Shown here: positions 25,519 to 55,400 of the stretch, piece after piece
How the letters are laid out: each line of letters opens with the position of its first letter
Position numbering within the stretch: the stretch's first letter is position 1
NCBI RefSeq assembly: GCF_007997215.1
Contig: NZ_VORW01000004.1
Coordinates: 124,001 to 188,000 of the forward strand
Reading direction: 5' to 3'
DNA: 64,000 nucleotides
DNA from: Algoriphagus aquimarinus
GTDB lineage: Bacteria > Bacteroidota > Bacteroidia > Cytophagales > Cyclobacteriaceae
Notes under the pieces: generated by a model
Database searches by the model: none
What the model saw: the letters and a program-made list of their open reading frames with translations, nothing else
What the model was told of the DNA's origin: nothing
Made by a program: the position numbers and the translations under genes

Positions 25519-25530
25519 GGTTTAGATAAA

Positions 25531-25740: not shown

Positions 25741-25989
25741 ATGGATACTAAACTCACATTAAAGCTTGATCAGGAAGTAATTGAAAAAGCTAAATTATTT
25801 GCATCTGAGAGGAAATTGAGCTTGTCTCGATTGATTGAAAATTACCTTAATTCTTTGACTTCAAATCAACCTACGGGTGAGCTGGAAATTTCTCCTTTTG
25901 TGAAAAGTCTTTCTTCAGGAGTTGAAATACCTGCCGACTATGACTATAAAAAGGATCGTGCTGATTATTTGGATCGCAAATACAGATGA
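25741..25989 (+). CDS. Antitoxin, DUF6364/ribbon-helix-helix-like
   Basis: 82 residues. The N-terminal half (TLKLDQEVIEKAKLFASERK, LSLSRLIENYL) has the beta-strand, helix, helix pattern of ribbon-helix-helix antitoxins that bind DNA as dimers. The C-terminal half is polar (DYDYKKDRADYLDRKYR) and is the expected toxin-binding tail. It overlaps the PIN-domain gene by 4 bases (ATGA), the normal antitoxin-first arrangement. It probably represses its own promoter through the TACGT palindromes just upstream. Confidence 0.82.
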   Translation: MDTKLTLKLDQEVIEKAKLFASERKLSLSRLIENYLNSLTSNQPTGELEISPFVKSLSSGVEIPADYDYKKDRADYLDRKYR

Positions 25990-26399: not shown

Positions 26400-26404
26400 A
26401 ACAC

Positions 26405-38397: not shown

Positions 38398-38612
38398 TCA
38401 AAAAGGACAGGGTTGTTCTTTTTTCGAAAGAACTTCCTGATTTTCATAGTCATTGCCATACTCACATATAAGATCACTGGCGATCCCATCGTAACGAATG
38501 AGGCATAAATAAAGAATAAACGAATGCTGTCAATAGGGAAGTTGAGCTTTTCACCCAAGCGTGAGCAAACCCCAAATGCTCTTTCTTCGAAGAAGATTTT
38601 CAGTTTTTCCAT
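38394..38612 (-). CDS. PspC-domain small membrane protein
   Basis: 72 residues with the PspC signature GVCSRLGEKLNFPIDSIRLFF followed by one long hydrophobic segment (~32-56) and a basic tail (KIRKFFRKK). PspC relates to phage-shock/envelope stress responses. The gene is convergent with the glycosyltransferase and their stops overlap by 4 bases. Confidence 0.85.
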   Translation of the reverse strand: MEKLKIFFEERAFGVCSRLGEKLNFPIDSIRLFFIYASFVTMGSPVILYVSMAMTMKIRKFFRKKNNPVLFD

Positions 38613-38674
38613 GGTAATAGGTGAGTTGGTTGCGGTAAATTTAAGGAAAAAGTCTCGTGTATTAACAAATAAGA

Positions 38675-40477
38675 ATGTTGGATCAATTGTTTAAGAAAAA
38701 ACCTGTTTTGTTTTTAATGCTTTTATTGCCACTGCTTTGTAGTTCAAAAATAGTGCCCGAAACCGATTTTTTAAAAGATTCTAAAGTAACACCGGGCAAG
38801 TTGGAATTCTTTAGAGATTCAGTTCGGTTTGAGGTTTCAGGTACCATCCCTATCGAATCAGCCTTAAGTCCGAGAAGCCCAAAGTTAAGTTTACTTTTCA
38901 AGTCATCAGAGAATTTCATGCGTTTTGAAGATATAGAATTAACTAAGAAGGTTGCAGAATACGAATACAAGAAATCCTATGTGATAGCCTATGAGCCCTG
39001 GATGGAAGGCGCTTTTTTAGAAGCTCAGTTTTTTCAAGGTAAAAAAGCCCAGATAGAACCGTATCAGAAAAAAATACTATCTAGGGGTGTGATTACTACT
39101 CCTTTATTGGCGAAAATAGGTAATGTCAATCCAGATGAGCCAATACCTCAGGTTGGGCTATTTATTTCCACAGGGGTGATGGATGCTGATCTTTCACGAT
39201 CGCAAGAGTTTCTGCTCAAGTTTGACGCAGGTTCTTCCACTATTAAAATGAATGCTGCGAATAAGAAAGCTATTGCTGATTTAAAGTCATTTTTGACTGA
39301 AAATTCGTCTGTGATGTCTTTTAGGATTACAGGTACTCAATCTCCAGAGGCCTCAGAAGGGAAAAGCAGTAAGCTGGGCATGGATAGGGCAGAGGCAGTA
39401 AAAAAACTTCTACTAGAATCAAATGTCTCTCTTAAAGAGAATGTGACAGAAATAAAGTCTCGGACGAATGACTGGTTTGATTTTCGGTTGCAGCTTCGTG
39501 GATACGATAAGCTTTTCACCCAAAGGAAAGACCAATATTATGCAGTTTTGTTAGATGGCTCAGACTATCAGTCACAAAGTCAATCACTAAAAAAGATAAC
39601 GGGCTTTACTCAGGTCGCTAGTGAATTGTTTCCAGGTCTACGAGCTGCAAAAATTGAAGTGGTAGCAAAACCTCTTCCGGGACTTAATCAAGTGCAGTCT
39701 GCTTTGCTTCAAAGAGCATTGGAGGAAAAATCAGCAAGTTCTGATCTCGATTTAGTAGACTGGGCCATTGCTGGTGAGACTACTCCTCGTCTTGAAGATA
39801 AGGCGAAGATTTACAGCAAAATGACAGAGCTTTTTCGATCCGCGATTCCGTATAACAACTTGGCAGTAGTGAAAATGCGTCAAGCCCAGCGTACACTTGA
39901 TCAAGCTACCAAAACTAAGTTATGGGAAGAAGCGAATGAATTGTTGTACCAAGCTTCCAAAATAGCCACCGATCCTTATGTTCTACACAATCAAGGTCAG
40001 ATCTTGGTTTTACAGGGCAAAACTTGGGAAGCCTATAAGAAGCTTTCAGATGCTTCAGTTTTGACGCGTAATCAAGATTTTCTGAAATACAACGAAAGCT
40101 TACGAGGAGCATTAGACATTATGCGGGGAGATTACAAATTGGCTACCCTACGTTTTGATTATACTTATTCGGAACCTAAGGATTTTTTCAATAAAGGATT
40201 GGCATATTTTCTCTCAAAAGATTACGCCAATGCAACTTTGTCATTTGAGGAGTCAGTAATGTCTGGAAGAAACTATGGATATGGCTTTTATGGCTTGGCG
40301 ATGGTTGCTGCGCAAAGTGCGCAAACCGAGGTTGCACTACTACAATTAGAGAAAGCAATTAATGCTAGTGAATTAATTTATCAAAAAGCATTGGTGGATC
40401 CGATATTTGAAGAAATCAGGTCATCTGATGAGTTTTTTCAAATATTCAGACCGTCTGTTAGCATTAATGAAAAATAA
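38675..40477 (+). CDS. Envelope protein with OmpA-like and TPR-like regions
   Basis: 600 residues. The N-terminus (KKPVLFLMLLLPLLCSSK) is a signal with a possible lipobox PLLC. Residues ~185-265 resemble an OmpA C-terminal-like peptidoglycan-binding domain (FDAGSSTIKMNAANKKAI ... MDRAEAVKKLLLES). Residues ~395-585 contain TPR-like helix pairs (NQGQILVLQGKTWEAYKKL, FFNKGLAYFLSKDYANATLSF). Specific function unknown. The last 155 bases are duplicated perfectly at 46572-46726. Confidence 0.8.
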   Translation: MLDQLFKKKPVLFLMLLLPLLCSSKIVPETDFLKDSKVTPGKLEFFRDSVRFEVSGTIPIESALSPRSPKLSLLFKSSENFMRFEDIELTKKVAEYEYKKSYVIAYEPWMEGAFLEAQFFQGKKAQIEPYQKKILSRGVITTPLLAKIGNVNPDEPIPQVGLFISTGVMDADLSRSQEFLLKFDAGSSTIKMNAANKKAIADLKSFLTENSSVMSFRITGTQSPEASEGKSSKLGMDRAEAVKKLLLESNVSLKENVTEIKSRTNDWFDFRLQLRGYDKLFTQRKDQYYAVLLDGSDYQSQSQSLKKITGFTQVASELFPGLRAAKIEVVAKPLPGLNQVQSALLQRALEEKSASSDLDLVDWAIAGETTPRLEDKAKIYSKMTELFRSAIPYNNLAVVKMRQAQRTLDQATKTKLWEEANELLYQASKIATDPYVLHNQGQILVLQGKTWEAYKKLSDASVLTRNQDFLKYNESLRGALDIMRGDYKLATLRFDYTYSEPKDFFNKGLAYFLSKDYANATLSFEESVMSGRNYGYGFYGLAMVAAQSAQTEVALLQLEKAINASELIYQKALVDPIFEEIRSSDEFFQIFRPSVSINEK

Positions 40478-40952
40478 GTAACAATTTTTTAATCATTCAC
40501 CTATTTTGATAAGTTAAAATATAGGGAATTGTATTATTCTGATTTTGGTAAAAGTCATAAATTAACCTAAATTGAGGCGTAATTGATGTTAAAACTGTGG
40601 ATTAGTGCCGTTAAACTAAAAAAAATCCAAATTTTATTTTTGCTTTGAATTTGAATTTTGTTTAAGAATCTTTAACATTGATGCTTTAGTACCATTAGTG
40701 TAACCCAAAATACGTGCCTATGAACAATTCTACTTAGATGAAGCGTGCCTACCCAAGTAGCATCACGTACAGATGCTCTCAAATCTCAAAGTTTCACACA
40801 GTTGGTTTTTAAAAAAGCCGCGGTATAGTCGCAAAAGTATCCTGTAAACCGGGAGATCATCTTTTGCTATTATTTTGAGCATGATCGCAATCGATTGCAT
40901 CAATAAAAAAAAAGACAAGTTTTTGAAATTAATCTTGTTACCCAATCTACCT
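40323..40952 (+). repeat. Direct repeat copy A: TPR gene 3' end plus SusC leader
   Basis: Aligns with 46572-47200. From 40323 to ~40585 the two copies differ at one position (C/T at ~40493). After that, similarity drops to ~80-90% with small indels but runs up to the SusC start. The block includes the last 51 codons of the TPR gene and ~475 bases of untranslated leader. The leader contains no gene. Confidence 0.93.
40882..40902 (+). promoter_or_regulatory. LacI-operator-like palindrome upstream of SusC pair 2
   Basis: TGAT-C-GCAATCGATTGC-ATCA: the central 12 bases are perfectly palindromic and the arms TGAT/ATCA extend it with one unpaired base. It is ~57 bases before the SusC ATG. The same element, with one change in the core, is conserved at the same place in copy B. 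Confidence 0.5.
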
Positions 40953-40958
40953 ATGTTT

Positions 40959-43900
40959 ATGAAAAATTTTTACAAAAGGCTAAGTGTATTTATGATGCTC
41001 TTGGCGATTTCGAGTACGGTTGTACTCGCTCAAAACAAAGTTTCAGGAAAGATTCTGGATGAATCTGGTGTTGGACTTCCAGGTGCAACTGTAACTATAA
41101 AAGGAACTACTTCAGGTGTTGTAGCTGATATTGATGGAAATTACAGTATTGATGTTCCTTCAAATGGATCAGTCCTCGTATTTTCTTTCGTCGGGTATGC
41201 AACATTGGAAGAAGCGGTTCAGAGCAGATCGTTGATCAATGTTCAATTGAAACTATCAGAAAGTTCACTTCAGGAAGTTGTTGTGACTGGTTATGGAGCT
41301 CAATCCAAAAGAGATATTACCGGGGCTGTAACGACTGTGAATACCGACGAATTGCTCTCTATTCCAGCGACTACATTTGCTCAGCAGCTTCAAGGAAGAG
41401 CTGCCGGTGTGAACATTGTTAATGATGCTACTCCAGGAGGAGAAGCGACTGTCCGTATTAGAGGTTTTGGTACCATCGGTAACAATAACCCGTTATACGT
41501 GATTGATGGGGTGCCTACAGAGAGACAAGGCAATCTAAACCCTGCAGATATTGAGACTATTCAAGTGTTGAAAGACGCATCTGCTGCTTCTATCTATGGC
41601 TCAAGAGCTGCAAACGGTGTGGTTATCATCACTACTAAAAGAGGGAAAGTAGGTAAGACATCAATTTCATTCAATACCTATTATGGAACTCAGCAGTCTG
41701 GGAATTCTATGGAGGTATTGAATTCAGCAGAACTTGGTCAGTATTTGTATCTAGCTGATATCTATGCAGGCAAAACTCCAACTCACGGACAGTACACTTT
41801 TGGTCCAAATGGAGAAGTAGGGATTCCTGATTATGTTTTCCCAAGTGGTGCTATGAATGGTGACCCAGCTACCAATCCAGATCTGTATTCTTTACAACCA
41901 GGCAATATTTATGCAATCACTAAATCAGCTGATACCAACTGGTGGGATGAGGTGACTAGATCTGCGGCTATTAAAAATTATCAAATTTCTGCTGCTGGTG
42001 GTACTGAGAGCGGTCGATATGCTTTATCCGTCGGTTATTTCAATCAGGATGGTATCGTCAAGTTTATTGGCTATGAAAGATACTCTTTGAGAGCTAACAC
42101 AGAGTTCAAAACTCTTAACAATAAATTGACTGTTGGAGAAAACCTTTCAGTAACATTTGACAATAGAAAAGGAGGGTTTGGAAATCAGGACGAGCAAAAT
42201 GCCGTATCTGGATCTTACAAGCACCATCCTTTGCTGCCAGTATATGACATCGCTGGTAATTTTGCAGGAAGTAGAGGAGTTAACCTAGGAAACAACTTTA
42301 ACCCTTATGCAATCATCTCACGTCAGCAAGACAACAGAACTTACAGAATGAGGGTTTTTGGTAATGCGTATGCTTCTTATGATTTCACAGACGATATCCA
42401 GTTTAAAACAAGTCTAGGTATTGATGCAAACACGAGTAGAGGTAGGTACCTAGGTCGCCCTCAACCTGAATATGTAGAAGGAAATTTCATCAATAGTACC
42501 ACTGCAACTAGTGACTATCAGTATCAGTGGGTTTGGTCAAATGTCTTAAGCTATACGAAGACGTTCAATGACATTCACAATGTGGACGTGTACGTCGGAA
42601 CTGAAGCTATCAAGGAATTTGGAGAGTTTTTCTCGGCAGGAAGACAAAGATTTGCATTTAATTCTCCTGAAATCCTTAGCTATTTGGACTTAGGTGATGC
42701 AACTACAGCTTCCAACTCTGGAAATGTGTCCAGAGATTACAGCTTGTTTTCTCAATTCGGTAAATTTAACTATTCTTATTTAGACAAATATTTGATTCAA
42801 GTTATCGTAAGAAATGATGCTTCTTCTAGGTTCTTGTCAGCATCAAGAAGCGCGGTTTTCCCTGCATTCAGTTTGGGTTGGAGATTGTCTGAGGAAGCAG
42901 CTGTAAGATCAGCATTACCTTTCGTGACTGATATGAAATTGAGATATGGATGGGGTAAGACTGGTAATCAAGCTATTGGTGATTACAACGCCTTCACTAC
43001 CTACAGATCTAATATTTTCAATGCTGGATATCCTATTGATGGATCCACTTCTTCACCGACAATCGGTTTTGATGCACAGAAATTTGGAAATCCTAATGCT
43101 AAGTGGGAAACAACTACTTCTAACAACTTAGGATTGGACGTTTTGATGTTTGGTGATAAGGTTAATTTGGAGTTTGATCTTTGGCAGCGAGTGACTTCAG
43201 ACATGCTATTTACTATTCCTATTACTTTCACTGCAGGTGATGCATCAGCTCCTTCTTCAAACGTGGGTCAAATTACAAACAAAGGAATTGACCTAAATCT
43301 AGGGTATAAAAACACTGCTGGAGGTGGAGATTTTAGTTATAGTGTTTCCGGTAATATCTCAACATATAGAAATGTGGTGGATAAATTGGATGATAATGAA
43401 GGTACCAGATTCTTCGGTTTTGGATCAAGAGTTCCAGCTGTGACATTGACTCAAGCTGGATTGCCATTGTCCTCTTATTATGGTTTCAATGTCCTAGGAA
43501 TATTCCAAACTCAGGAAGAGGCTAATTCTCATGCTACTTACGGAAGCTACAATGCTCCGGGTAAATTCAAAATAGAAGATGTAAATAACGACGGAGAGAT
43601 TACTGACCTCGATAGAACAGTAATCGGAAATCCTCATCCAGACTTTACGTATGGTATCAATTTGAATTTGGGTTACAAGAACTTTGAGTTTACCATTTTC
43701 GGTAATGGTTCTGTAGGTAATGATATCTTTAACTATGTTCGGTACTTCGCTGATTTCAATACGTTCCAAGGTAACAGGTCGAAAAGAGCTCTTTACGATG
43801 CATGGCAACCAAGCAACCCAACAGCGCCTAAGTCGCAGTGGGTAGCAGCTAATCCAAATGCAACAGCTCCTATTATGGACGCGAATGATCAAGTAAGTAG

Positions 43901-44168
43901 CCGTCCATCAAGCTACTTTATTGAGGATGGTACATATTTCCGAATCAGAAACATTCAATTGACTTATAATTTGCCAGCTACTACGCTGTCTAAAATTGGG
44001 TTTGGTAGAGCATCTCTGTATGTGCAGGGACAAAATCTTGTGACTATTACCAAATACTCAGGTTTAAATCCAGAGATTCAGACAAATACTGATAATACAC
44101 TCGGTTTTGATGGGGGATATATGCCGGTATCAAAGAATTTTTTGATAGGTCTTAATCTAAATTTCTAA
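40959..44168 (+). CDS. SusC/RagA-family TonB-linked outer-membrane transporter (pair 2)
   Basis: Outer-membrane importer. Signal peptide ends VLAQ; carboxypeptidase-regulatory-like domain (GKILDESGVGLPGATV, VLVFSFVGYA); TonB-box-like VVVTGYGAQSKR; plug with VRIRGFGTIGNNNPLYVIDG in pieces and the SusC signature VLKDASAASIYGSRAANGV; then barrel, ending LNLNF. Start at 40959 (MKNFYKR) or 40953 two codons earlier. The in-frame ATG at 40875 is rejected because copy B of the leader breaks that frame. Followed by SusD after 12 bases. Paralogue of the transporter at 47207. Confidence 0.95.
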   Translation: MKNFYKRLSVFMMLLAISSTVVLAQNKVSGKILDESGVGLPGATVTIKGTTSGVVADIDGNYSIDVPSNGSVLVFSFVGYATLEEAVQSRSLINVQLKLSESSLQEVVVTGYGAQSKRDITGAVTTVNTDELLSIPATTFAQQLQGRAAGVNIVNDATPGGEATVRIRGFGTIGNNNPLYVIDGVPTERQGNLNPADIETIQVLKDASAASIYGSRAANGVVIITTKRGKVGKTSISFNTYYGTQQSGNSMEVLNSAELGQYLYLADIYAGKTPTHGQYTFGPNGEVGIPDYVFPSGAMNGDPATNPDLYSLQPGNIYAITKSADTNWWDEVTRSAAIKNYQISAAGGTESGRYALSVGYFNQDGIVKFIGYERYSLRANTEFKTLNNKLTVGENLSVTFDNRKGGFGNQDEQNAVSGSYKHHPLLPVYDIAGNFAGSRGVNLGNNFNPYAIISRQQDNRTYRMRVFGNAYASYDFTDDIQFKTSLGIDANTSRGRYLGRPQPEYVEGNFINSTTATSDYQYQWVWSNVLSYTKTFNDIHNVDVYVGTEAIKEFGEFFSAGRQRFAFNSPEILSYLDLGDATTASNSGNVSRDYSLFSQFGKFNYSYLDKYLIQVIVRNDASSRFLSASRSAVFPAFSLGWRLSEEAAVRSALPFVTDMKLRYGWGKTGNQAIGDYNAFTTYRSNIFNAGYPIDGSTSSPTIGFDAQKFGNPNAKWETTTSNNLGLDVLMFGDKVNLEFDLWQRVTSDMLFTIPITFTAGDASAPSSNVGQITNKGIDLNLGYKNTAGGGDFSYSVSGNISTYRNVVDKLDDNEGTRFFGFGSRVPAVTLTQAGLPLSSYYGFNVLGIFQTQEEANSHATYGSYNAPGKFKIEDVNNDGEITDLDRTVIGNPHPDFTYGINLNLGYKNFEFTIFGNGSVGNDIFNYVRYFADFNTFQGNRSKRALYDAWQPSNPTAPKSQWVAANPNATAPIMDANDQVSSRPSSYFIEDGTYFRIRNIQLTYNLPATTLSKIGFGRASLYVQGQNLVTITKYSGLNPEIQTNTDNTLGFDGGYMPVSKNFLIGLNLNF

Positions 44169-44180
44169 ATATATTCTGTT

Positions 44181-45920
44181 ATGAAAACGATATATAAATT
44201 ACTATCACTTGTAATGTTATTATTTATCACGATCAGTTGTGGTGATGAATTCTTAACAAATGAGCCACAAGGACAATTCTCATCGAAAGGATTGGCTACT
44301 GAATCAGGAGTGGAAGGACTTCTGTTGGGCTCTTATAAAATGCTTTCAGGTACTGGACTGGATGGTCAGGCTCCATGGGAAAATGATGTTCAAAACTGGG
44401 TGTTTGGTGGTATAGCTTCAGATGATGCATACAAGGGCACAGATGCCGGGGATCAGCCTGAGCAGTCTTTTATCGAGGCATATGATTTTCAGGCTTTTAA
44501 CGGGCACATTAAAAATAAGTGGAGAGGTCTGTACAAGGGCATTGCAAGAGCAAATGATGCACTTAATACTTTAAAACAAGTAGAGGATGTCAGTGAAGCT
44601 ACTAGGACTCGTATTATCGCTGAAGCAAGATTCTTAAGAGGATTTTTCCATCTTGAAGCTAGAAAAATGTGGAAAAGCCCTCCATATATCAGTGATGAGA
44701 TTTTTGATATCAATGATGTAGAAAGCACAAAGGTTCCTAATGACGTCGAAATCTGGCCTTTAATCGAAGCCGATCTCCAAGCTGCGATGGAAAAACTACC
44801 TGAGACGCAAGCTCAAGTAGGAAGGCCTACCAAGTGGGCAGCTATGGCATTACTAGCTAAAGCAAAAATGTACCAGGGATGGGATGCAAACGGTAATGCC
44901 AACACGGCCAAACTTACTGAAGCAAAAGCGCTTTTGGATCAAATCGTAAATAGTGGAAAATTCACGCTTGTTGATAAATTTCAAGACAACTTCTTGGTTG
45001 AAACACGTAACAATGCTGAGTCTATCTTTGAAATTCAATACGCGATAAACAGTGCCAATGACCAAGCTTCAAATCAGGGAGTGGGTCTTGCGCACCCATA
45101 CATCGATCCATGGGGATGCTGTGGGTTCTACCAAGCTTCTCAAAACTTGGTGAATGCTTTCAAGACATCTCCTTCTGGACTTCCTCTTTTGGACAACTTC
45201 AATAATTCAGATGTGACTTGGGAGACTGAGTACACTGGATTCCTTGACCCTAGAATCGATCATTCTTTAGGAAGACCAGGAATTCTTTTCAAGGATTTTA
45301 AAATTCATGGGACAGATTTCGTAAGGGACGTATCTTACGCAGGCCCTTATTCTTCTATGAAGCATGTAGCAGAAAAAGCAGCCTTTGGTATTGGTGGATG
45401 GGGTAACCTGACTGCTAATAATTACAGGATTCTGCGTTACGACATGATTTTGCTATGGTTAGCTGAAGCTGAAGTTGAGATTGGAAGTCTTGAAAGAGCG
45501 AGGCAATTGGTGAATATGGTCAGGACAAGGGCGGCAAATCCAGATAGTTTCGTTCCTAAAGCTATCCAAGGAAGTTCAAGAAATGATTTCACCATCGTGG
45601 ATGGAGTACCAGCGGCGAATTACAACATCAAAACTTATGATGTTTCATGGACTGACAAAGATCTTGCTAGAAAGGCTGTAAGATTCGAAACTAGACTTGA
45701 GTTTAGCATGGAAGGACATCGTTTCTTTGACCTTCAAAGATGGGGTATTTCTGCCCAGGTGTTGAATGATTATCTGGCTGTTGAGAAAAATAAGCGAGTG
45801 TACTTAAGTGGAAAAACATTTACCAAGAATAAAAATGAATATTTCCCTATTCCACTTGAGGCCATTGATAGATCGTTGAAAGATGGCAATCCTACTTTGA
45901 CTCAGGATCCCAATTATTAA
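44181..45920 (+). CDS. SusD/RagB-family lipoprotein (pair 2)
   Basis: 579-residue surface binding protein of pair 2. Lipobox TISC (Cys ~20), then the classical SusD N-terminus DEFLTNEPQGQFSS, RARFLRGFFHLE-type TPR region (EARFLRGFFHLEARKMW) and C-terminal GHRFFDLQRWGIS and YFPIPLEAIDRS. A vicinal cysteine pair lies in DPWGCCGFYQAS (~residues 307-318) and is conserved in the SusD of pair 3. A strong terminator follows. Confidence 0.95.
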   Translation: MKTIYKLLSLVMLLFITISCGDEFLTNEPQGQFSSKGLATESGVEGLLLGSYKMLSGTGLDGQAPWENDVQNWVFGGIASDDAYKGTDAGDQPEQSFIEAYDFQAFNGHIKNKWRGLYKGIARANDALNTLKQVEDVSEATRTRIIAEARFLRGFFHLEARKMWKSPPYISDEIFDINDVESTKVPNDVEIWPLIEADLQAAMEKLPETQAQVGRPTKWAAMALLAKAKMYQGWDANGNANTAKLTEAKALLDQIVNSGKFTLVDKFQDNFLVETRNNAESIFEIQYAINSANDQASNQGVGLAHPYIDPWGCCGFYQASQNLVNAFKTSPSGLPLLDNFNNSDVTWETEYTGFLDPRIDHSLGRPGILFKDFKIHGTDFVRDVSYAGPYSSMKHVAEKAAFGIGGWGNLTANNYRILRYDMILLWLAEAEVEIGSLERARQLVNMVRTRAANPDSFVPKAIQGSSRNDFTIVDGVPAANYNIKTYDVSWTDKDLARKAVRFETRLEFSMEGHRFFDLQRWGISAQVLNDYLAVEKNKRVYLSGKTFTKNKNEYFPIPLEAIDRSLKDGNPTLTQDPNY

Positions 45921-45940
45921 CTTGATTTAACTTTAACCTA

Positions 45941-45979
45941 AAGAGCCTATCCTATAACTTTGGATAGGCTCTTTATTTT
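45941..45979 (+). terminator. Terminator after SusC/SusD operon 2
   Basis: Perfect stem AAGAGCCTATCC / GGATAGGCTCTT with a short loop, then TATTTTT. Confidence 0.92.
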
Positions 45980-46571
45980 TGCCTACCTGACTACCCTGAG
46001 TTTATGCTACAAACTGGATCCGATACATATTGCTTTATCCTCAATTGTCTCTGGAGTTATGCCGCCCTAAAACCCATCTTGGTCGCTGTGATGAAGGTAA
46101 TGGGAAGCATTCATGTTTTGGTTGGCAGATTGCTACTTTCCATCACTTTTTCGCGCTTGATGCTGGTTCTGAATTTACAGCTGGAGCACGGAAAAGATTG
46201 CTTGTTTTCAAGCCAGTAGTGTTTGGTGCAGCCACAGCTTTTGCAGTGAATACCTTGTTAAATTCGTTGGTTTTTGATGAACGCAATGCAAGCAGATTCG
46301 TCAGGGAACCTATTGTGGAAATTGAAGATATTTATGGTCAAAACCGTCTATTTCTACCTAATTAAAATGATTGATTACCTTAATAAAGCAAGTGTCACTA
46401 CCTGTCAGTTTTAACTTATTTGGCTACTGTTGACTTTGCGGATATACAAGTACTTCAATAACACATCAGTTAATGCTTAAGCAAATTCAGGCAAAAACTT
46501 TTCCATACGCACAAAAGACCTATAGATTAGAACGTGATTTGGGAAATTTCTTTGAGAAAGTAAATCAAGAA
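45980..46571 (+). other. Unexplained spacer between SusCD operons 2 and 3
   Basis: About 590 bases unique to this position; nothing comparable follows operon 3. A 111-codon plus frame (46030-46365) is open but begins and ends arbitrarily and shows no signal peptide or motif I recognise. Part of it (GARKRLLV...VVFGAATAFAV) is compositionally protein-like, so it could be a remnant. The last ~100 bases hold a truncated gene start described separately. Confidence 0.4.
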
Positions 46572-46598
46572 AAACCGAGGTTGCACTACTACAATTAG
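46473..46598 (+). pseudogene. Truncated gene start fused to the duplicated block
   Basis: An ATG at 46473 opens a frame MLKQIQAKTFPYAQKTYRLE... with good coding character for ~33 codons. At 46572 it runs into the duplicated TPR-gene fragment out of its frame and stops eight codons later (tag 46596-46598). The upstream sequence TTGACTTTG...TATAC could be its promoter. It looks like the 5' end of a gene cut at the rearrangement junction; the family is not recognised. Confidence 0.4.
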
Positions 46599-47200
46599 AG
46601 AAAGCAATTAATGCTAGTGAATTAATTTATCAAAAAGCATTGGTGGATCCGATATTTGAAGAAATCAGGTCATCTGATGAGTTTTTTCAAATATTCAGAC
46701 CGTCTGTTAGCATTAATGAAAAATAAGTAACAATTTTTTAATTATTCACCTATTTTGATAAGTTAAAATATAGGGAATTGTATTATTCTGATTTTGGTAA
46801 AAGTCATAAATTAACCTAAATTGAGGCGTAATTGATGTTATTGCTACGAATTAGTGCAGGTAACCTAAAAAAATTCCAAATTTTATTTTAGCCTTTGAAT
46901 TTGAATTTTGTTTAAGAATCTTTAACATTGATGCTTTAGTACAATTAGTGTAACCCAAAATATTTGCCTATGACCTATTCTACTTAGAAAGAAGTGTGCC
47001 CACCCATGTAGCGTCACTTACAGATGCTCTCAAACCTAAAGGTTTTTCACAGCTGGTTTTTAAAAAGCCGCGGTATCGCAAAAGTATCCTGTAAATCGGG
47101 AGAATATCTTTTGCTATTATTTTGAGCATGATCGCAAACGATTGCATCAATAAATTACAAGGACAAGTTTTTGAAATTAATCTTGTTACCCAATCTATCT
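46572..47200 (+). repeat. Direct repeat copy B: displaced TPR gene 3' end plus SusC leader
   Basis: Contains a perfect copy of the final 155 bases of the TPR gene (46572-46726, without the rest of the gene) followed by a leader ~99% identical for ~108 bases and then ~80-90% identical to copy A. Offset from copy A is 6249 bases at the start, 6247 at the operator. Confidence 0.93.
47129..47149 (+). promoter_or_regulatory. LacI-operator-like palindrome upstream of SusC pair 3
   Basis: TGAT-C-GCAAACGATTGC-ATCA, one base different in the core from the copy at 40882. It lies ~58 bases before the SusC ATG. Conservation in a leader that has otherwise drifted supports function. Confidence 0.5.
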
Positions 47201-47206
47201 ATGTTT

Positions 47207-50200
47207 ATGAAAAATATTTACAAAAATCTGAGTGCACTTTTTGTGCTCTTAGTTCTTACCGGAGCGGCTGCCTTTGCGCAAAAAACCGTTACTGGTACTG
47301 TATTAGACGAGTACGATATAGGACTTCCAGGGGTTACTATCCTCGTGAAAGGAACGACAACAGGGACTGCTACAGACATTGACGGAAAGTTCTCCCTCAA
47401 TGTGCCAAGTGATCAGTCTGTTCTAGTGTTCTCATTTATAGGTTATTCTCCTATTGAGCAGGCAGTTGGAAACAGAAGCATCGTGGATGTTAAAATGGCT
47501 CCAGACGAAAGAACTCTTACTGAAATGATTGTAACAGGTTACACCATTGACAGTAGAAGAGAAACTACAGGGGCTATCGCTACTGTAGATCCAAAGGATT
47601 TGACAGTAATACCTACTGGTAACGTAGAGCAGGCTCTTCAAGGCCGTGTTTCTGGTGTTACGGTAATTACAAACGGTCAACCAGGTACTTCTTCAATTAT
47701 CCGTGTTCGTGGTTTTGGATCTTTCGGCGGAAATCAGCCACTATATGTGGTGGATGGGGTTCCAGTACAATCTACAGATTTCTTGAATCCTGATGACATC
47801 GAATCAACTACAGTGTTGAAAGATGCAGCAGCAGCATCTATCTATGGTGCTAGAGCATCAAATGGTGTGATCATTTATACCACTAAGAGAGGCCGTAAAG
47901 GAGATCAGAAATTGAGAGTGGATTACAACGGTATGTTCGGTGTGACTACTCCAGGTGAAGGATTAGAAATGATGAATCCACAGGATTTCGCTACCTATAC
48001 TTGGCTAGCAGAGACTAATCAAGCTATGCAAGATGGCAGAGCTCCTAAATATGAGCACCCTCAGTTCGGTAACGGAACCACTCCTGTTTTGCCTTACTAT
48101 ATCAATGTCGGTGGTGCATCCGGAGTAGCTGGACCATTCTCTGAAGCACAATTGGCTACAGAGAGAGAAAACTATAATGTGGATAGATCAAAAGGTGGTG
48201 TATATCAAGTAGTAAGAGCTGCAACTGGTCAGGGTACTGACTGGTATAAAGAACTTACTAGAAATGCTCCTTTGAATAGACACTCTATCGGCTTGAATGG
48301 TGGATCTGAATCCAGTAGATTTTTTGTTGGATTAGGATATCAGGACCAAGCAGGTATTATGTTGAATAATAATTTCAAGAGGATATCACTACGTGCTAAC
48401 TCTGAGTTTGATGTTACTAAGAGATTTAGAATTGGAGAAAACTTCCAAGCTACTTATCGTCAAGTTTTAGGTCAAAGTGGTGGTACTGGTGGACAGGGTG
48501 TTGCTCAGGATGAGAACGATATCTTGCAAGCATTCCGTATGCCTTCTATTATACCTGTTTACGATGAATTCGGTGGCTACGCAGGTACTGCGGCTAAAGG
48601 ATTTAACAACCCTAGAAACCCGATTGCAAACCGTGATGGTCAAGTAAACAATAGAAACTTTAATGCGAATATCTTCGGTAACGTTTATGCAGAAGTTGAT
48701 CTTATTGACAACGTGAAGTTCAGAACTTCTTTCGGTGGACAGTATAATAACTACTACTATTGGGACTACGGCAGATTGCAGTATGAGAACTCTGAAAATA
48801 ACTCAGCATTCGGTTATGGCGAAGGTTCTGGTTTTAACTTCGGTTGGGTATTTACCAATACAGTTAGCTGGAAAAAGCAATTTGACAAGCATTCATTTGA
48901 CGTGATTTTAGGTCAGGAAGCTTTAAATAATGGAGCAGGGCGAAACATTAGCGCAAGTGGACAGAATCCTTTCTCTACTGATCCAGACTTCGTTACAATC
49001 TCAAACTTACCAGTGTCTACTAGACAAGTAAATTCATCTCAGTATAAAGGCGTGAATTTCGCTTCCTACTTTGGTAGATTAAACTATACTTATAACGATA
49101 AGTATCTATTCAGTGCAGTGATTAGACGAGATGGTGCATCTGTATTTGGAGCTAACTCTAGATATGGTGTATTCCCTGCATTGTCAGGTGCATGGAGAAT
49201 GTCATCTGAAAGTTTCATGTCTGGCATGACTTGGATAGACGAACTGAAAGTTCGTGGTGGATGGGGACAAATGGGTAACTCTAATCCAGTTCCTGCGACC
49301 AACCAATATTCTCTATTCGGAGGAAATGTCGGTGCTTCTTCTTATGACATATCGGGTTCTAACTCTTCAGCTTTAATAGGCTTTAGAAGAACTACTATAG
49401 GTAACCCAAATACACAGTGGGAAACTGCAGTTACCCAAAACATAGGTTTTGATGGTACATTCTTCAATGGTAGATTAGATGTAATATTTGATGTATGGCA
49501 GAAGGATACTAAGGATCTATTGTTCCAACTTCCAATTCCACAGACTGCTGGTAGTAATGCTACTCCACCTTTTGTGAACATTGGTCAGATGAAAAACGCA
49601 GGTATAGATCTTTTGGTAGCTGTAAAAGGTAATCTTTCTAGTGCCTTCACTTACGATATGACAGTTACTGCATCTACTTTGAAAAATGAGATTGTTGCTT
49701 TGGCGCCAGGATTGGATATCATTACTTCCATCAACCCTAGCTACAGAGGTATTCAGCCAATCAGAAACCAAGTAGGTCACTCACTTTCTTCCTTCTACGG
49801 ATACCAAGTTGAAGGTCTATTTAGTTCTGCAGAAGATGTCGCTAACCACGCAACACAAGATGGTGCTGCACCTGGTCGATTCAAATATGCTGATATTGAA
49901 GGTAGAGATGCAAATGGTAAGCTAACTGGTAAGCCAGATGGCCAAATCACTCCAGATGATAGAACATTTATAGGTAGCCCAGTTCCTGATTTCACAGGTG
50001 GTGTAAACTTTACAGTGGGTTACAAAGGATTGGATTTGTCTGTTTATGTATACACTTCTCTAGGTAATGAGATTTTCAATCAATCTAGATGGTTCACTGA
50101 TTTCTATCAGACGTTTGAAGGAGCAGCTATTTCTGAGCGTTTGAAAGATGCTTGGACTCCACAAAATCTTGGAGCTACTATTCCTATTGTAGAAAAAACT

Positions 50201-50488
50201 GCAAACTTCTCTACCTCTAACGTAGCTAATTCATTCTATGTAGAAAATGGATCTTACTTGAGATTGCAGAACGTAACTTTAGGTTACACTCTTCCAGCTC
50301 CTTTACTAGAGAGATGGAGATTGGAAAAACTTAGAGTATTTGCTTCTACTAACAACTTGTTTACTATCACAGGTTATAGTGGTCTAGACCCTGCAGTAGG
50401 TGGAAATGCCGATACTACTTTCGGTATTGATGTAGGTAACTACCCAGTTACTCGAGGTTATACTTTTGGAGTAAATCTTAGCTTCTAA
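47207..50488 (+). CDS. SusC/RagA-family TonB-linked outer-membrane transporter (pair 3)
   Basis: Paralogue of the pair 2 transporter with the same architecture: signal peptide ending AFAQ, regulatory-like domain (GTVLDEYDIGLPGVTI, VLVFSFIGY), TonB-box-like MIVTGYTIDSRR, plug (IRVRGFGSFGGNQPLYVVDG in pieces, VLKDAAAASIYGARASNGV) and barrel ending GVNLSF. Protein identity to pair 2 is clearly far lower than the identity of their leaders. The start is at 47207 or 47201. SusD follows after 52 bases. Confidence 0.95.
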   Translation: MKNIYKNLSALFVLLVLTGAAAFAQKTVTGTVLDEYDIGLPGVTILVKGTTTGTATDIDGKFSLNVPSDQSVLVFSFIGYSPIEQAVGNRSIVDVKMAPDERTLTEMIVTGYTIDSRRETTGAIATVDPKDLTVIPTGNVEQALQGRVSGVTVITNGQPGTSSIIRVRGFGSFGGNQPLYVVDGVPVQSTDFLNPDDIESTTVLKDAAAASIYGARASNGVIIYTTKRGRKGDQKLRVDYNGMFGVTTPGEGLEMMNPQDFATYTWLAETNQAMQDGRAPKYEHPQFGNGTTPVLPYYINVGGASGVAGPFSEAQLATERENYNVDRSKGGVYQVVRAATGQGTDWYKELTRNAPLNRHSIGLNGGSESSRFFVGLGYQDQAGIMLNNNFKRISLRANSEFDVTKRFRIGENFQATYRQVLGQSGGTGGQGVAQDENDILQAFRMPSIIPVYDEFGGYAGTAAKGFNNPRNPIANRDGQVNNRNFNANIFGNVYAEVDLIDNVKFRTSFGGQYNNYYYWDYGRLQYENSENNSAFGYGEGSGFNFGWVFTNTVSWKKQFDKHSFDVILGQEALNNGAGRNISASGQNPFSTDPDFVTISNLPVSTRQVNSSQYKGVNFASYFGRLNYTYNDKYLFSAVIRRDGASVFGANSRYGVFPALSGAWRMSSESFMSGMTWIDELKVRGGWGQMGNSNPVPATNQYSLFGGNVGASSYDISGSNSSALIGFRRTTIGNPNTQWETAVTQNIGFDGTFFNGRLDVIFDVWQKDTKDLLFQLPIPQTAGSNATPPFVNIGQMKNAGIDLLVAVKGNLSSAFTYDMTVTASTLKNEIVALAPGLDIITSINPSYRGIQPIRNQVGHSLSSFYGYQVEGLFSSAEDVANHATQDGAAPGRFKYADIEGRDANGKLTGKPDGQITPDDRTFIGSPVPDFTGGVNFTVGYKGLDLSVYVYTSLGNEIFNQSRWFTDFYQTFEGAAISERLKDAWTPQNLGATIPIVEKTANFSTSNVANSFYVENGSYLRLQNVTLGYTLPAPLLERWRLEKLRVFASTNNLFTITGYSGLDPAVGGNADTTFGIDVGNYPVTRGYTFGVNLSF

Positions 50489-50540
50489 GTATTGTTAAAT
50501 AGATAAATCTAGTTATAGAAACTATAATTGATTATAAAAC

Positions 50541-52265
50541 ATGAAGAATTATAAATTAAAAGTCGGAGCTCTTTTGTCATCAGCATTGATGATGGTGGCA
50601 GTGAGCTGTAGCGATGAGTTTCTCGAGGTTCCAGCTACTGGACAACTCGCAGAGGCACAATTGACCACTCTTGCTGGGCTTGAGGCATCTTTGATTGCGG
50701 CTTATTCTCAAGTAAATGGCAGGGGAAATAGACTAGCCTCACCATCCAACTGGGTGTGGGGAAGTATCAGAGGTGGAGATGCCAATAAAGGGACAGATCC
50801 AGGTGATTTCAGTACAATTAACCCTATTCAGCGATTTGAAACTAATGCTGCCTCAGGTGATGTTGGTTCTAAGTGGAACGGCGCATATGAAGGCATCGCA
50901 AGAGCAAATAATGTTCTTAGGCTGATGATGAGTAAGGCTGGTGACGTAACACCTGCAGATGAAGCTAGAATTTCAGCTCAAGCTAGATTCTTGAGAGCTC
51001 ACTACTACTTTGAACTGAAAAGAGACTACGGTAATACTCCTTATGTCGATGAAACAGTAGATTATGGCTCAGGATTAGAGGAAGTTAGCAATACGCAAGA
51101 TTTGTATCCTTTTATCGAAGCCGATCTTCAATTTGCAATATCAAACCTTCCAGCTGTTCCTTCTCAGGTAGGTAGAATCAACTCATGGGGTGCCAAGGCA
51201 CTTCTGGGTAAAGTTTACCTTTATCAAAAGAAGTATCCTGAAGCTAAAACTCTTTTTGACGATGTAATAGCAAATGGAGTAACCAGTAAAGGAGATAAAT
51301 ATGGTTTAATTGATAATTATGGAGATGTGTTTAGAGGAGCATTTGACAACACCCAAGAGTCAGTTTGGGTTTATCAAGCGGCTGCTGGAACTGGTTCTGT
51401 AAATAATGCGAATCCTGAATTTGATTTGAACTACCCTTACAATGGTGGACCAGCTGGTTGCTGCGGGTTCTTCCAACCAAGCTTTTCTTTCGTAAACTCT
51501 TTCAGAACTGATGCTACTGGTCTTCCATATGTGGATGGGTCTTTTAACGCTTCAGCTAATAGAGTTAAGAATGATATGGGATTAGCTAGTGACGCTGCCT
51601 TTACAACTGATCAAGGAAATTTGGATCCAAGATTAGATCATACTGTAGGTAGAAGAGATATCCCTTATTTGGATTGGGGAAATCACCCAGGGGCTGCTTG
51701 GATCAGGAATCAGCCAAATGGTGGACCATATGCTCCTAAAAAGTATATCTACCAGAAAGCTGAAATCGGCAGCTTCCAAGATGGATCAAGCTGGACGGCT
51801 GGCTACACTGGTATGAACTTTAACATGATCAGATTCGCTGATGTATTGTTGATGGCTGCTGAAGTAGAAGTAGAAGTAGGTAGCTTGGAAACAGCTCGTG
51901 GATATGTGAATAGAGTTAGAACTCGTGCTATGAACTCCATTCTTAAAGATGAGACAGGAACCGCTGCAGCTAACTATAAAATAAGTCTATACAATACACC
52001 GTGGAGTAGTCAAACTGCTGCTAGAGACGCGGTTCGATTCGAAAGAAAACTTGAACTCGGAATGGAAGGCCATAGATTCTATGACTTAGTAAGATGGGAT
52101 ATCGTTCAAGCAGAATTGGATGCGTACTTTGCACATGATGGAGCTATTTTGATAGCTGCACTTGGTGGAGCTAAATTCACTGATAAGTATAAGTTTGTTC
52201 CAATCCCTCAAGATCAGATTGACTTGGTAGGGCCTGATATTCTAATTCAGAATCCTGGATTCTAA
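50541..52265 (+). CDS. SusD/RagB-family lipoprotein (pair 3)
   Basis: 574-residue surface binding partner of pair 3. Lipobox VSC (Cys ~23), classical start SDEFLEVPATGQLAE, TPR segment SAQARFLRAHYYFELKRDYG, and C-terminal GHRFYDLVRWDIV and FVPIPQDQIDLV. Shares the vicinal Cys motif AGCCGFFQPS with pair 2. It has insertions relative to pair 2 around residues 330-380. Closed by a perfect hairpin terminator. Confidence 0.95.
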   Translation: MKNYKLKVGALLSSALMMVAVSCSDEFLEVPATGQLAEAQLTTLAGLEASLIAAYSQVNGRGNRLASPSNWVWGSIRGGDANKGTDPGDFSTINPIQRFETNAASGDVGSKWNGAYEGIARANNVLRLMMSKAGDVTPADEARISAQARFLRAHYYFELKRDYGNTPYVDETVDYGSGLEEVSNTQDLYPFIEADLQFAISNLPAVPSQVGRINSWGAKALLGKVYLYQKKYPEAKTLFDDVIANGVTSKGDKYGLIDNYGDVFRGAFDNTQESVWVYQAAAGTGSVNNANPEFDLNYPYNGGPAGCCGFFQPSFSFVNSFRTDATGLPYVDGSFNASANRVKNDMGLASDAAFTTDQGNLDPRLDHTVGRRDIPYLDWGNHPGAAWIRNQPNGGPYAPKKYIYQKAEIGSFQDGSSWTAGYTGMNFNMIRFADVLLMAAEVEVEVGSLETARGYVNRVRTRAMNSILKDETGTAAANYKISLYNTPWSSQTAARDAVRFERKLELGMEGHRFYDLVRWDIVQAELDAYFAHDGAILIAALGGAKFTDKYKFVPIPQDQIDLVGPDILIQNPGF

Positions 52266-52290
52266 TTAGTTGATTCACATACATTTTAAA

Positions 52291-52318
52291 AGGGAGGCAT
52301 TTGCCTCCCTTTTTTTTT
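52291..52318 (+). terminator. Terminator after SusC/SusD operon 3
   Basis: Perfect palindrome AGGGAGGCA-TT-TGCCTCCCT followed by nine T. Confidence 0.95.
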
Positions 52319-52407
52319 GTATTTAATGCTTAAAAAAGCTAAGTTATATTTCTGAATCGCACCCAAATGTGGTAATTTCAAACACCTAAGTACCCAACCT
52401 ATTTACT

Positions 52408-55400
52408 ATGAAGTTCACTTATTCTGGCCTATTGGTTTTATTCCTTTTGGCTTTTTCCTCTTGCAAAAAAGAAACTACTCTATTCGAACTTATCCCCTCT
52501 AGTACGACAGGCATTGATTTTAGTAATACAATTGTAGAATCTGACTCATTTAATATCCTCACTGATGAATATATCTTTAATGGTGGAGGTTTGGCCGTGG
52601 CAGATTTTGACAATAACGGACTGCCTGATCTGTTTTTTACAGGAAACCAAGTTCCGAATAAACTATACCTCAATTCTGGTAAATTCAAGTTTGATGATAT
52701 AACAGAGTCTGCCGGTGTAGCTGCTGCTAATCAATGGTGTACAGGTGCGGCTGTTGTAGACATAAACGGAGATGGCTGGATGGATATTTATGTTGCCTCC
52801 GCAATGAAACTCGGTCCAGGTGAGCGGAATAATTTGCTTTTTGTGAACCAAGGAAAGGATGCCTTGGGGCAAATTACTTTTAAAGAAATGGCAACTGAGT
52901 ATGGTATTGCTGATTCTGGAAATGCAATGTGGGCTTCCTTTATAGATTATGATTTGGATGGAGATTTGGATTTGTACGTGCTGAATAATGAGCAAAAGCG
53001 AAGTGTGCCAAGTAACTATCGCCTAAAAATAACTGACGGTTCTGCTATTAATAATGATAAGTTTTACAGAAATAATGGTGATGGTTCATTTACAGATGTG
53101 ACCATAGAAGCCGGGATTACCATTGAAGGATATGGATTGGGTTTATTGGTTGCTGATTTGAATAATGATGGCTGGCCTGATATTCATGTCAGTAATGATT
53201 ATGTGACTAATGATATTCTATATATCAATAATCAGGATGGTACTTTTTCCAATCAATCCAATGAAAGGCTGAGACATCAAAGCCAATTTTCAATGGGAGG
53301 TGATATTTCTGATTTTAACAATGATGCCCGACCAGATATTATCACACTTGATATGCTCGGGGAAGATAATTATCGTAAGAAGACAACCATTGGGAACAAC
53401 TCTTACCAGGTCTATATAAGCAACGAACAATGGGGCTACGAATACCAGTATGTCCGGAATATGCTCCATATGAATACTGGCGATAATGTGCCATTTAGTG
53501 AGATAGGAATGATGGCAGGCATGTATCAAACTGACTGGAGTTGGGCGCCATTATTTGGTGATGTGGACAATGATGGCTATCGTGATCTGCTGGTGACTAA
53601 TGGGTTTCCAAGAGATATTACAGATAAAGACTTTGCTAATTACAGAGCAGATGTGGGCAGCATAGCTACTACCCGTCAGCTGTTAGATTCCATACCAATC
53701 GTAAAAATCCCAAACTATGCATTCAAAAATAATGGTGATTTAACATTTACTGATCAAGGAATCAATTGGGGTTTGAATAAACCTTCATTTTCCAATGGGG
53801 CAGCTTTTGTAGATCTGGATAATGATGGTGATTTGGATTATGTGGTAAATAATATCAATGATCCTGCTTTTGTATTTCAAAACCATCTTAAAAATTCGGA
53901 GCAAAAGAATAATTATGTGAGGTTGGAACTGAAAGGCTCAAAGCTAAATCCCCAAGGTTTAGGGACCAAAATTTTACTCACCCTTCCAAACGGAAATCAG
54001 CTCTATCAGGAGCAGCAAGTTGTAAGAGGCTACATGTCATCGATTGATGAAGTGATGCATTTCGGAGTGGGTGAAGTTTCTGAAATCACCTCTATTCAGG
54101 TTATTTGGCCAGATGGAAAAGAAAGTTCTTTGGCAAATGTGAAGGTAAATCAGCTACTTGAATTTGCATATTCAGATGCAAAGGAAGGTAAAAACAAATT
54201 GGCAATAATTCCTACAGAACCAACAAATGCACTTTTTGAGGAAGTTTCGACAGCAAAGGGTTTAGAATACACACATGAAGAAGATGATAAAGTTGATTTC
54301 AATATTCAGCGTGTCATTCCACACAAACTGAGTCAGTATGGACCAAGCCTAGCAGCTGGTGATGTGAATGGAGACGGACTCGAGGATTTGGTGGTTGGAT
54401 CAGCTTCTGGGTATGCTCCGCAGGTATTTATTCAAAATTTAGAAGGAAAGTTTTCTATTAAGAATCTAATTCCAGAAGACGGGAATTTCTTTGAGGAAAT
54501 GGGTATTCTGCTTTTTGATATAGACAACGATTCAGATCTCGATATGTATCTGGTGGGAGGAAGCAACGAGTTTTTGGGAGATGCCACTGAGTATACAGAT
54601 CGATTGTTTTTAAATGATGGTAAGGGAAATTATTCGCTGGACAAGAACTTTTCTTCGGTAAAAGCAAGTGGATCAGCCGTTCGTGGTGCTGATTTCGATG
54701 GAGATGGCTTTATGGATTTATTCGTAGGCGGCCGGACGCCTGTTGCGCAATATCCTTTTCCTGATAGAAGCTTTCTACTTAAAAATATCAATGGTCAACT
54801 TCAGGATGTCACGGATGAAATTGCTCCTGGACTTCGCAAAGTAGGTATGGTGACGGATGCAATCTGGTCAGATGTAGATGCTGACGGGTTGGTAGATTTG
54901 GTTGTAGTAGGAGAATTGATGGAGATTTCTGTTTTCAAGAATACCGGAGAAAAACTAACAAAGCTCGAAAATACCGGACTTGAAAATTATTTGGGTTGGT
55001 GGAATTCTATCACTTCTGGAGATTTTGATCAAGATGGAGATACTGATTTTGTAGTTGGGAATCTAGGTGAAAACAACTCGCATCATCCCACAGCTGAACG
55101 ACCTGTTAAGATTTACGCTAAGGATTTTGATAATAATGGCAGTGTGGACCCAATCACTTTTGCTTACTACAAGGATCGTGAAGGTAATTACAACTCATTT
55201 CCAAGTCATTTCTGGGGAGATTTGTATGGACAAAGTCCCATGTTCAGAAGGAAGTTTGAACGCTATAAGCTATATGCACTAAGTACTGAGCAGTCTCTTT
55301 TTACTGAAAAAGAAAGGGAGGATGCACTAATTCTTATAGGTAATTATGACAAGACTGCCTACATCGAAAACCTTGGTAATGGTAAGTTTCAAGTTAAACG

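What the first reader, a model, noticed from the sequence alone, without database searches (positions are those of the whole stretch)
40323..46834. SusC/SusD operon 2 inserted behind an intact gene whose 3' end is repeated on the far side
The last 155 bases of the OmpA/TPR gene and ~108 bases beyond it (40323-40585) reappear at 46572-46834 with a single mismatch. Between the copies lie SusCD pair 2 and ~650 bases of unrelated DNA. A simple tandem duplication would repeat that spacer after pair 3, but 52266 onward is unrelated. So an entire SusCD module appears to have been placed at a gene 3' end, with the 3' end carried along or copied. The 6.25-kb unit between near-identical direct repeats should be able to loop out.
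Basis: partly seen in the sequence, partly recalled or inferred. Interest (0 to 1): 0.72.

Follow-up and report, generated by a model that had tools for sequence, protein, structure and literature searches.

The report
Foreign SusCD pair beside resident pair
A bacterium of the genus Algoriphagus appears to have acquired a foreign pair of outer-membrane nutrient-uptake genes, which now sits just in front of its own resident pair behind a near-copy of the resident pair's control region, with a repeated stretch of DNA as the scar of the insertion.

Summary
The repeat is real but longer than reported: 40323-41002 and 46572-47250 align at 92.4%, from the OmpA/TPR gene's 3' end through the susC leader into the signal peptide. 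The first 269 nt differ at one base; the rest is about 88%.

The genome is Algoriphagus. The resident order is TPR-leader-SusCD3-ASPIC (SusD3 in 65 of 72 genomes). Pair 2 is an addition (SusD2 in 4 of 72). It is 95% identical in protein to A. antarcticus pair 2, with dS 0.31-0.38 against 1.4-2.2 for the neighbours, so it moved horizontally. In A. antarcticus it fills the same slot, again followed by a decayed TPR 3' fragment. In a third species it lies on the other side of pair 3. In each, the leader of pair 2 resembles that lineage's own leaders; grouping the three pair-2 leaders is rejected (p-AU 4e-51).

The spacer is a SusD2 terminator, a truncated IS1595-type element and 123 unexplained bases.

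Best reading: insertion anchored by homology at the resident leader, with a non-homologous join upstream in TPR. It is not att-type integration at a gene 3' end and not a plain tandem duplication. Transfer and mosaic are shown; the mechanism is inferred.

The parts
38675..40477 (+). intact OmpA/TPR-type gene (600 aa), left border of the slot
   Evidence: Pfam OmpA and TPR_2 below the curated cut-offs; NCBIfam TPR_END_plus 31.5 bits, cut-off 32; relative in 69 of 72 genus genomes
40323..40591 (+). copy 1 of the near-identical tract (TPR 3' 155 nt plus 114 nt)
   Evidence: site patterns
40592..41002 (+). copy 1 of the susC leader / 5' end, in front of SusC2; about 88% to copy 2
40953..44168 (+). 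SusC2 (TonB-dependent receptor; listed ORF starts at 40875 TTG, likely start ATG 40953)
   Evidence: TIGR04056 855 bits, cut-off 368
44181..45920 (+). SusD2 lipoprotein
   Evidence: PF07980 118.7 bits, cut-off 23.1
45940..45974 (+). SusD2 terminator-like hairpin, a similar hairpin follows SusD2 in A. antarcticus and G053
   Evidence: sequence
45988..46448 (-). truncated IS1595-type element: outer end plus first 108 residues of the transposase, with stops
   Evidence: full relatives L076, L077 carry PF12762 and PF12760; tblastn 65%
46449..46571 (.). 123 bp of unexplained DNA between the IS end and the repeat
   Evidence: (own copy plus one 32-nt match)
46572..46840 (+). copy 2 of the near-identical tract (orphan TPR 3' fragment 46572-46726 plus 114 nt)
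46841..47250 (+). copy 2 of the susC leader / 5' end (resident leader)
47201..50488 (+). SusC3, resident receptor (listed ORF starts at 47171 TTG, likely start ATG 47201)
50541..52265 (+). SusD3, resident lipoprotein
52408..55932 (+). FG-GAP / ASPIC-UnbV protein, right border of the slot

Best explanation
Pair 2 (SusC2-SusD2 with its terminator) is a horizontally acquired receptor pair that was inserted in front of the resident pair 3. Shown: pair 2 was exchanged between the A. antarcticus lineage and the window's lineage, and in each host its coding part is joined, at about the start codon and signal peptide, to a leader of that host's own lineage. Inferred mechanism for this genome: incoming DNA from a close relative, carrying leader-SusC2-SusD2-terminator-IS remnant-123 bp, paired by homology with the resident TPR/leader region (homologous join near 40591). 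Its other, non-homologous end was joined illegitimately to the TPR gene at 40323, upstream of the homologous join. This leaves the stretch 40323-40591 twice, keeps TPR intact on the left and leaves the resident leader and pair 3 intact on the right (homology-facilitated illegitimate recombination). Expected result (inferred): the new pair is expressed from a leader nearly equal to the resident one, the resident pair is kept, and the unit can be lost again by recombination between the direct repeats.
For: Transfer: window against A. antarcticus dS 0.31 (C2) and 0.38 (D2), but 1.85 TPR, 1.55 C3, 2.21 D3, 1.39 ASPIC. Nucleotide identity rises from 57-74% in the leader to 88% and more within about 150 nt around 40846-40995, and stays there to the end of SusD2. 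SusD2 in 4 of 72 genus genomes; in the SusD2 tree G141, of another genus, joins window, A. antarcticus and G053 (100/100) while G040, of the same genus, falls elsewhere (weakly placed). Leader is native: grouping window copy 1 with the A. antarcticus pair-2 leader is rejected (p-AU 1.1e-7; 1.4e-113 and, for the TPR-end tract, 8.6e-8); grouping all three pair-2 leaders is rejected (4e-51). Mosaic: in 40323-40591 sites read W1=W2 unlike A. aquimarinus 23, W1=Aq 0, W2=Aq 1; in 40592-40960 they read 8, 14, 22 (Fisher p 2e-10). So the first 269 nt are a very recent copy while the two leaders are about as far apart as different species. No homology between the two copies is seen left of 46572, as expected of an illegitimate join. 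Similar scars: A. antarcticus has SusD2-terminator directly followed by a TPR fragment plus leader (742 nt, 85.5% to its own copy), joined at a different TPR point; G053 has an 84-nt repeat (86.9%) of the DNA after SusD3 on both sides of pair 2.
Against: No donor with leader-pair 2-IS-123 bp was found, so the right-hand join cannot be shown to be illegitimate. Gene conversion between two older copies would also give a 269-nt identical tract. In the leader tree window copies 1 and 2 as sisters are not rejected (p-AU 0.29), and in the TPR-end tract window copy 2 with A. aquimarinus is not rejected (0.095); the mosaic claim rests on identity and site patterns. Natural competence of Algoriphagus was not examined. 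The G053 leader pair is not strongly supported (93/78).
Confidence: 0.57

Rival explanations
1. Older insertion plus gene conversion: pair 2 entered the slot before or about when the window lineage and A. aquimarinus parted; the flanking TPR end was duplicated then, later homogenised by gene conversion in this genome; A. aquimarinus lost pair 2 by loop-out.
For: The two leaders are about as diverged from each other (87-94% by segment) as from A. aquimarinus (89-96%); only the first 269 nt are near-identical; A. antarcticus shows an old version of the same arrangement.
Against: Needs a separate loss in A. aquimarinus and a conversion tract that runs exactly to the left end of the repeat; the A. 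antarcticus TPR fragment was not kept alike in the same way (three stops, 69% aa).
Confidence: 0.2
2. Tandem duplication of the resident unit (TPR end-leader-SusCD3), then replacement of one SusCD3 copy by SusCD2 through homologous recombination in the shared leader.
For: Leaders of both pairs are native in each lineage; in G053 the DNA behind SusD3 occurs on both sides of pair 2.
Against: In the window and in A. antarcticus nothing of a first SusD3 downstream region remains before the TPR fragment (only short chance-level matches in A. antarcticus); no genome among the 57 with a linked TPR-SusD3 interval shows two SusCD3 copies by spacing.
Confidence: 0.13
3. Campbell-type integration of a circle (for example a looped-out leader-pair 2 unit from another cell) by one crossover in the TPR-end/leader homology.
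For: Would place pair 2 between direct repeats in one step; such a circle could arise from the A. antarcticus-like arrangement.
Against: A single crossover predicts that one copy changes from recipient to donor where the other changes from donor to recipient; the observed near-identity of both TPR ends plus diverged leaders does not fit without a further conversion. No circle was sought in reads.
Confidence: 0.07
4. Integration of a site-specific element at a gene 3' end, with the repeat as an att duplication.
For: Intact gene on one side, its 3' end repeated on the far side.
Against: The ORFs of at least 100 aa between the copies are SusC2, SusD2, a 111-aa frame antisense to the transposase remnant and a 132-aa antisense frame; no recombinase. 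No tRNA gene in the window. The repeat runs far into susC, and the TPR break point differs between the two species.
Confidence: 0.03

Closest known systems
Homology-facilitated illegitimate recombination (Acinetobacter, Streptococcus pneumoniae, Pseudomonas stutzeri, Escherichia coli)
   Same: One end joined by homology, the other without; foreign DNA gained. (Start of the abstract of PMC3240628 in the listing; passages of PMC5361080.)
   Different: Here the illegitimate join appears to lie upstream of the homologous one, so recipient DNA is duplicated rather than deleted; inferred from sequence, not observed.
Displacement of effector-immunity modules in Vibrio cholerae type VI secretion clusters (PMC5361080)
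   Same: A constant upstream region acts as anchor, the incoming module takes the place next to it and the old module is shifted downstream; the authors propose the same recombination route (passages).
   Different: Here the module is a nutrient receptor pair, and the old pair is kept whole instead of being reduced to an immunity gene.
Transformation-made merodiploids in S. pneumoniae (PMC3784515)
   Same: Uptake of a short fragment with a repeated part creates duplications through exchange between sister chromatids (passages).
   Different: Duplications there are about 100 to 900 kb; here a few hundred nucleotides, with foreign cargo.
Horizontal transfer and allelic variation of SusCD/RagAB pairs in Bacteroidota
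   Same: Receptor pairs differ between related strains and move between genomes (PMC11817032, start of abstract in the listing: four ragAB alleles; rest recalled).
   Different: Here the acquired pair is stacked beside the resident pair, behind a leader of the host's own lineage.

Membership tests
SusC/SusD (RagA/RagB) receptor pair | SusC/RagA-type TonB-dependent receptor followed by SusD/RagB lipoprotein | tested here: met
   TIGR04056 855.3 and 850.3 bits (cut-off 368.25); PF07980 118.7 and 140 bits (cut-off 23.1) for pairs 2 and 3
Homology-facilitated illegitimate recombination product | DNA foreign to the recipient lineage | tested here: met
   dS contrast and narrow distribution
Homology-facilitated illegitimate recombination product | One junction inside shared homology | tested here: met
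   change of site pattern near 40591 within homologous leader DNA
Homology-facilitated illegitimate recombination product | Other junction without homology, made by microhomology or none | tested here: inconclusive
   No match between the two sides left of 46572, but the donor sequence is not known
Integrative element with an att site at a gene 3' end | Recombinase gene in the element | tested here: not met
   ORFs of at least 100 aa between the copies hold none
Integrative element with an att site at a gene 3' end | Same crossover site in independent insertions | tested here: not met
   TPR fragment starts at different points in the window (residue about 549) and in A. antarcticus (about 503-509), and G053 has none
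Composite transposon | Two IS copies around the cargo | tested here: not met
   One truncated IS1595-type copy here; none seen in A. antarcticus; in G053 a complete copy with 8-bp target repeat on one side only
Plain tandem duplication | Both units alike outside later change | tested here: not met
   SusC2/C3 38% aa and SusD2/D3 37% aa, pS near saturation; pair 2 relatives occur in 8 other genera of the family

The most novel reading that the evidence does not exclude
The susC3 leader of Algoriphagus works as a standing landing platform: a foreign SusCD pair is repeatedly (three lineages seen) captured by splicing its coding part onto a leader of the host's own lineage at the start codon/signal peptide, stacking receptors in one slot between TPR and ASPIC, with direct repeats that allow later loss. 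Because relatives of pair 2 in other genera also often stand directly before an ASPIC gene (9 of 19 loci), the two pairs may be interchangeable versions serving one partner protein, so the slot would swap substrate range while keeping expression control.
Probability: 0.3. Interest if true: 0.65.

Novelty: new variant of a known kind. Interest (0 to 1): 0.47.

Why it matters
SusCD pairs decide which large nutrients a member of the Bacteroidota can take up. How a new pair is brought under working control after transfer is seldom visible. Here the scar lets the steps be read: the coding part is foreign, the leader belongs to the host's lineage, the old pair is kept, and a direct repeat is left that should make the gain reversible. 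Three lineages with the same pair in the same slot make the route testable by comparison of strains. In the searches made no paper describing this was seen; subscription journals are largely outside that library.

Tried and rejected
Site-specific integration at the TPR 3' end: rejected, no recombinase, different break points, repeat runs into susC. Plain tandem duplication: rejected. Composite transposon: the two 305-aa ORFs around pair 2 in G141 looked at first like the 305-aa transposase of G053 but are a patatin-like protein and a TIM-barrel protein. IS1595 as vehicle in G053: the element there has target repeats (TTAGATTTT seen on both sides, 8 of these bases counted as the duplication) and so entered on its own, later or separately. 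Pair 2 flanks travelling with it: rejected by the AU tests. The 123 bp at 46449-46571: one 32-nt match in one other genome (G030, E 4.6e-4), origin unknown. Rfam over 38600-53000: nothing at gathering score. Pfam on the typed 63-residue piece of the transposase remnant: no family; the assignment was later made from full relatives. The Bacteroidota promoter motif TAnnTTTG (recalled) occurs in leader copy 1 (40635) but not in copy 2, so it was not used.

Limits of counts: one search used 69 TPR, 65 SusD3 and 64 ASPIC rows typed; second TPR fragments (G000, G003) and the split G055 row were left out, and partial ASPIC rows were left out, of which three (G040, G043, G061) lie on the SusD3 contig with ordinary spacing (140, 136, 157 nt by hand). 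One of the 59 SusD3-ASPIC pairs (G038) lies 144 kb apart. In one search, 3 of 8 loci L034-L041 gave a leader; the other five are stored on the opposite strand and were not turned. One search looked at 19 loci of the 24 non-own genomes with a match. Gains and losses are from one genome per species.
Full report
OBSERVATION. The repeat is there at the stated coordinates with one mismatch in 263 nt. It is the best-conserved part of a longer homology: 40323-41002 against 46572-47250, 92.4% over 684 columns. The near-identical tract is 269 nt. Beyond it the alignment shows the susC leader at about 88% and then, in the signal peptide, a fall to the level of two old paralogues (SusC2/SusC3 38%, SusD2/SusD3 37% aa). 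The 680-nt block occurs at these two places only in the genome.

WHAT LIES THERE. OmpA/TPR-type gene; leader; SusC2; SusD2; terminator-like hairpin; 461 bp of a truncated IS1595-type element; 123 bp of unknown DNA; TPR 3' fragment; leader; SusC3; SusD3; FG-GAP/ASPIC-UnbV protein. The IS assignment rests on matches in 15 other genomes of the genus. Of the 32 matches listed apart from the window's own, 31 end at window 46446-46448 (counted). Two full relatives have PF12762 and PF12760, and residues 1-108 of one transposase align to 46012-46341, minus strand, at 65%.

RELATIVES. The genus is Algoriphagus; among the named loci the nearest is A. aquimarinus (TPR 94%). In 13 of the 19 named loci the TPR gene is followed directly by SusCD3, and in 12 of these the ASPIC gene follows in the piece held. 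A. locisalis has TPR then ASPIC without a SusCD pair; A. winogradskyi and A. yeomjeoni have neither pair nor ASPIC there. L014 and L021 end just behind TPR. A. antarcticus (L005, the same contig as G003:C94 by length and position) is the one with TPR-SusCD2-TPR fragment-SusCD3-ASPIC. Over whole genomes: TPR in 69 of 72, SusD3 in 65 of 72, SusD2 in 4 of 72. In the 57 genomes with TPR and SusD3 on one contig and strand the interval has a median of 3810 nt and is widened only in the window genome (10066) and A. antarcticus (9628). In the 59 with SusD3 and ASPIC linked it is widened by a pair-2 insert only in G053 (6816); G038 has the two 144 kb apart. G053 is TPR-SusCD3-IS1595-leader-SusCD2-ASPIC. 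The fourth genome, G040, has pair 2 on a 4.1-kb contig whose place is unknown.

HORIZONTAL TRANSFER. Window against A. antarcticus: dS 0.31 and 0.38 for SusC2 and SusD2; 1.85, 1.55, 2.21 and 1.39 for TPR, SusC3, SusD3 and ASPIC. For G053 the case is weaker: proteins of pair 2 are 88% identical against 51-74% for the neighbours, but synonymous sites are near saturation for all. The SusD2 tree puts G141, of another genus, with window, A. antarcticus and G053 (100/100), and G040 apart from them. In the family search SusD2 relatives were found in 25 of 295 genomes, 9 of 84 genera, the window's included. In 9 of 19 such loci an ASPIC homologue follows SusD2 directly, so pair 2 belongs naturally to the same kind of neighbourhood as pair 3.

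THE LEADER IS OF THE HOST'S LINEAGE. In a tree of 21 leaders the A. antarcticus pair-2 leader is sister to the pair-3 leader of the same genome (100/98). The window's two leaders stand with A. aquimarinus and A. chordae (93/92). The G053 pair-2 leader stands with its own pair-3 leader (93/78, not strong). Joining the pair-2 leaders of window and A. antarcticus is rejected (p-AU 1.1e-7; 1.4e-113 with 11 rows), joining G053 and A. antarcticus is rejected (4.4e-80), and joining all three is rejected (4e-51). So what moved between lineages is the coding part from about the start codon to the SusD2 terminator.

MOSAIC INSIDE THE REPEAT. Against A. aquimarinus, in 40323-40591 the two window copies share 23 differences, and 0 and 1 sites split them. 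In 40592-40960 the numbers are 8 shared, 14 with copy 1 like A. aquimarinus and 22 with copy 2 like it (Fisher p 2e-10). The first part is a very recent copy; the leaders are not. Against this: sister status of the two leaders is not rejected by the AU test (0.29), nor is copy 2 with A. aquimarinus in the first tract (0.095).

MECHANISM. A single event accounts for all this: homologous joining of incoming leader-pair 2 DNA near 40591, and a join without homology of its other end (the 123 bp) to TPR at 40323, upstream of the homologous join. The stretch between the two points is then present twice and identical; the left leader is the donor's and the right one the resident's. The donor must have been a close relative that had already joined pair 2 to a leader of this clade. 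Step status: transfer shown; native-type leader shown; mosaic shown; illegitimate join, donor and direction of transfer inferred. Scars of the same kind are seen in A. antarcticus (TPR fragment directly behind the SusD2 hairpin, about 742 nt at 85.5% to its own copy, fragment with three stops) and in G053 (84 nt at 86.9% on both sides of pair 2). The break points differ, which speaks for separate events.

KNOWN PARALLELS. Passages of PMC5361080 describe new effector-immunity modules of Vibrio inserted behind a constant upstream anchor, shifting the old module downstream, and propose homology-facilitated illegitimate recombination. Passages of PMC3784515 show duplications made during transformation by exchange between sister chromatids. 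The start of the abstract of PMC3240628 (listing) defines the process. Searches for SusC/SusD with recombination, Algoriphagus, shuffling, mosaic and gene conversion listed no paper that, by title and start of abstract, describes this case.

A SECOND CASE IN THE WINDOW. At 25522-25623 and 26396-26497 the 3' end of a LytTR response-regulator gene is repeated around a PIN-domain gene. A. aquimarinus has the same arrangement. A. ratkowskyi has neither the PIN gene nor the fragment. A. chordae has both but in another order. A. resistens has the PIN gene without a fragment found by tblastn. Modules set at gene 3' ends with the end repeated may thus be a wider habit of these genomes; this was only partly followed.

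VERDICT. The insertion reading is right, the 'gene 3' end' reading is not. The process is of a known kind in a new setting with an informative scar.

Noticed in passing
window 25522-25623 and 26396-26497: A second gene 3' end repeated around a module: the end of a LytTR response-regulator gene (26405-27148, minus) is repeated (102 nt, 91%) on the far side of a PIN-domain gene (25986-26399). Same layout in A. aquimarinus; both absent in A. ratkowskyi; A. chordae and A. resistens differ.
   Followed up: partly
window 50768-52118: Within SusD3 identity to A. aquimarinus falls to about 71-89% between flanks of about 95%, which suggests replacement of part of the resident SusD3 in one lineage.
   Followed up: no
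window 40930-40970 and 47178-47218: The last about 40 nt before and over the susC start are nearly invariant in the leaders compared, more than coding would require; a one-mismatch copy of 21 nt of it lies elsewhere in the genome at G000:C3:37923. Possible RNA or regulatory element; no Rfam match.
   Followed up: partly
L066 9579-10628 (G053): Complete IS1595-type element with an 8-bp target repeat between SusD3 and the pair-2 leader.
   Followed up: yes
G038:C1: SusD3 and ASPIC lie 144 kb apart in an otherwise conserved slot, a rearrangement.
   Followed up: no
L071, L072, L073: Three complete genomes (A. winogradskyi, A. yeomjeoni, A. locisalis) have lost SusCD3 from the slot; two of them lack the ASPIC gene there as well.
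   Followed up: no
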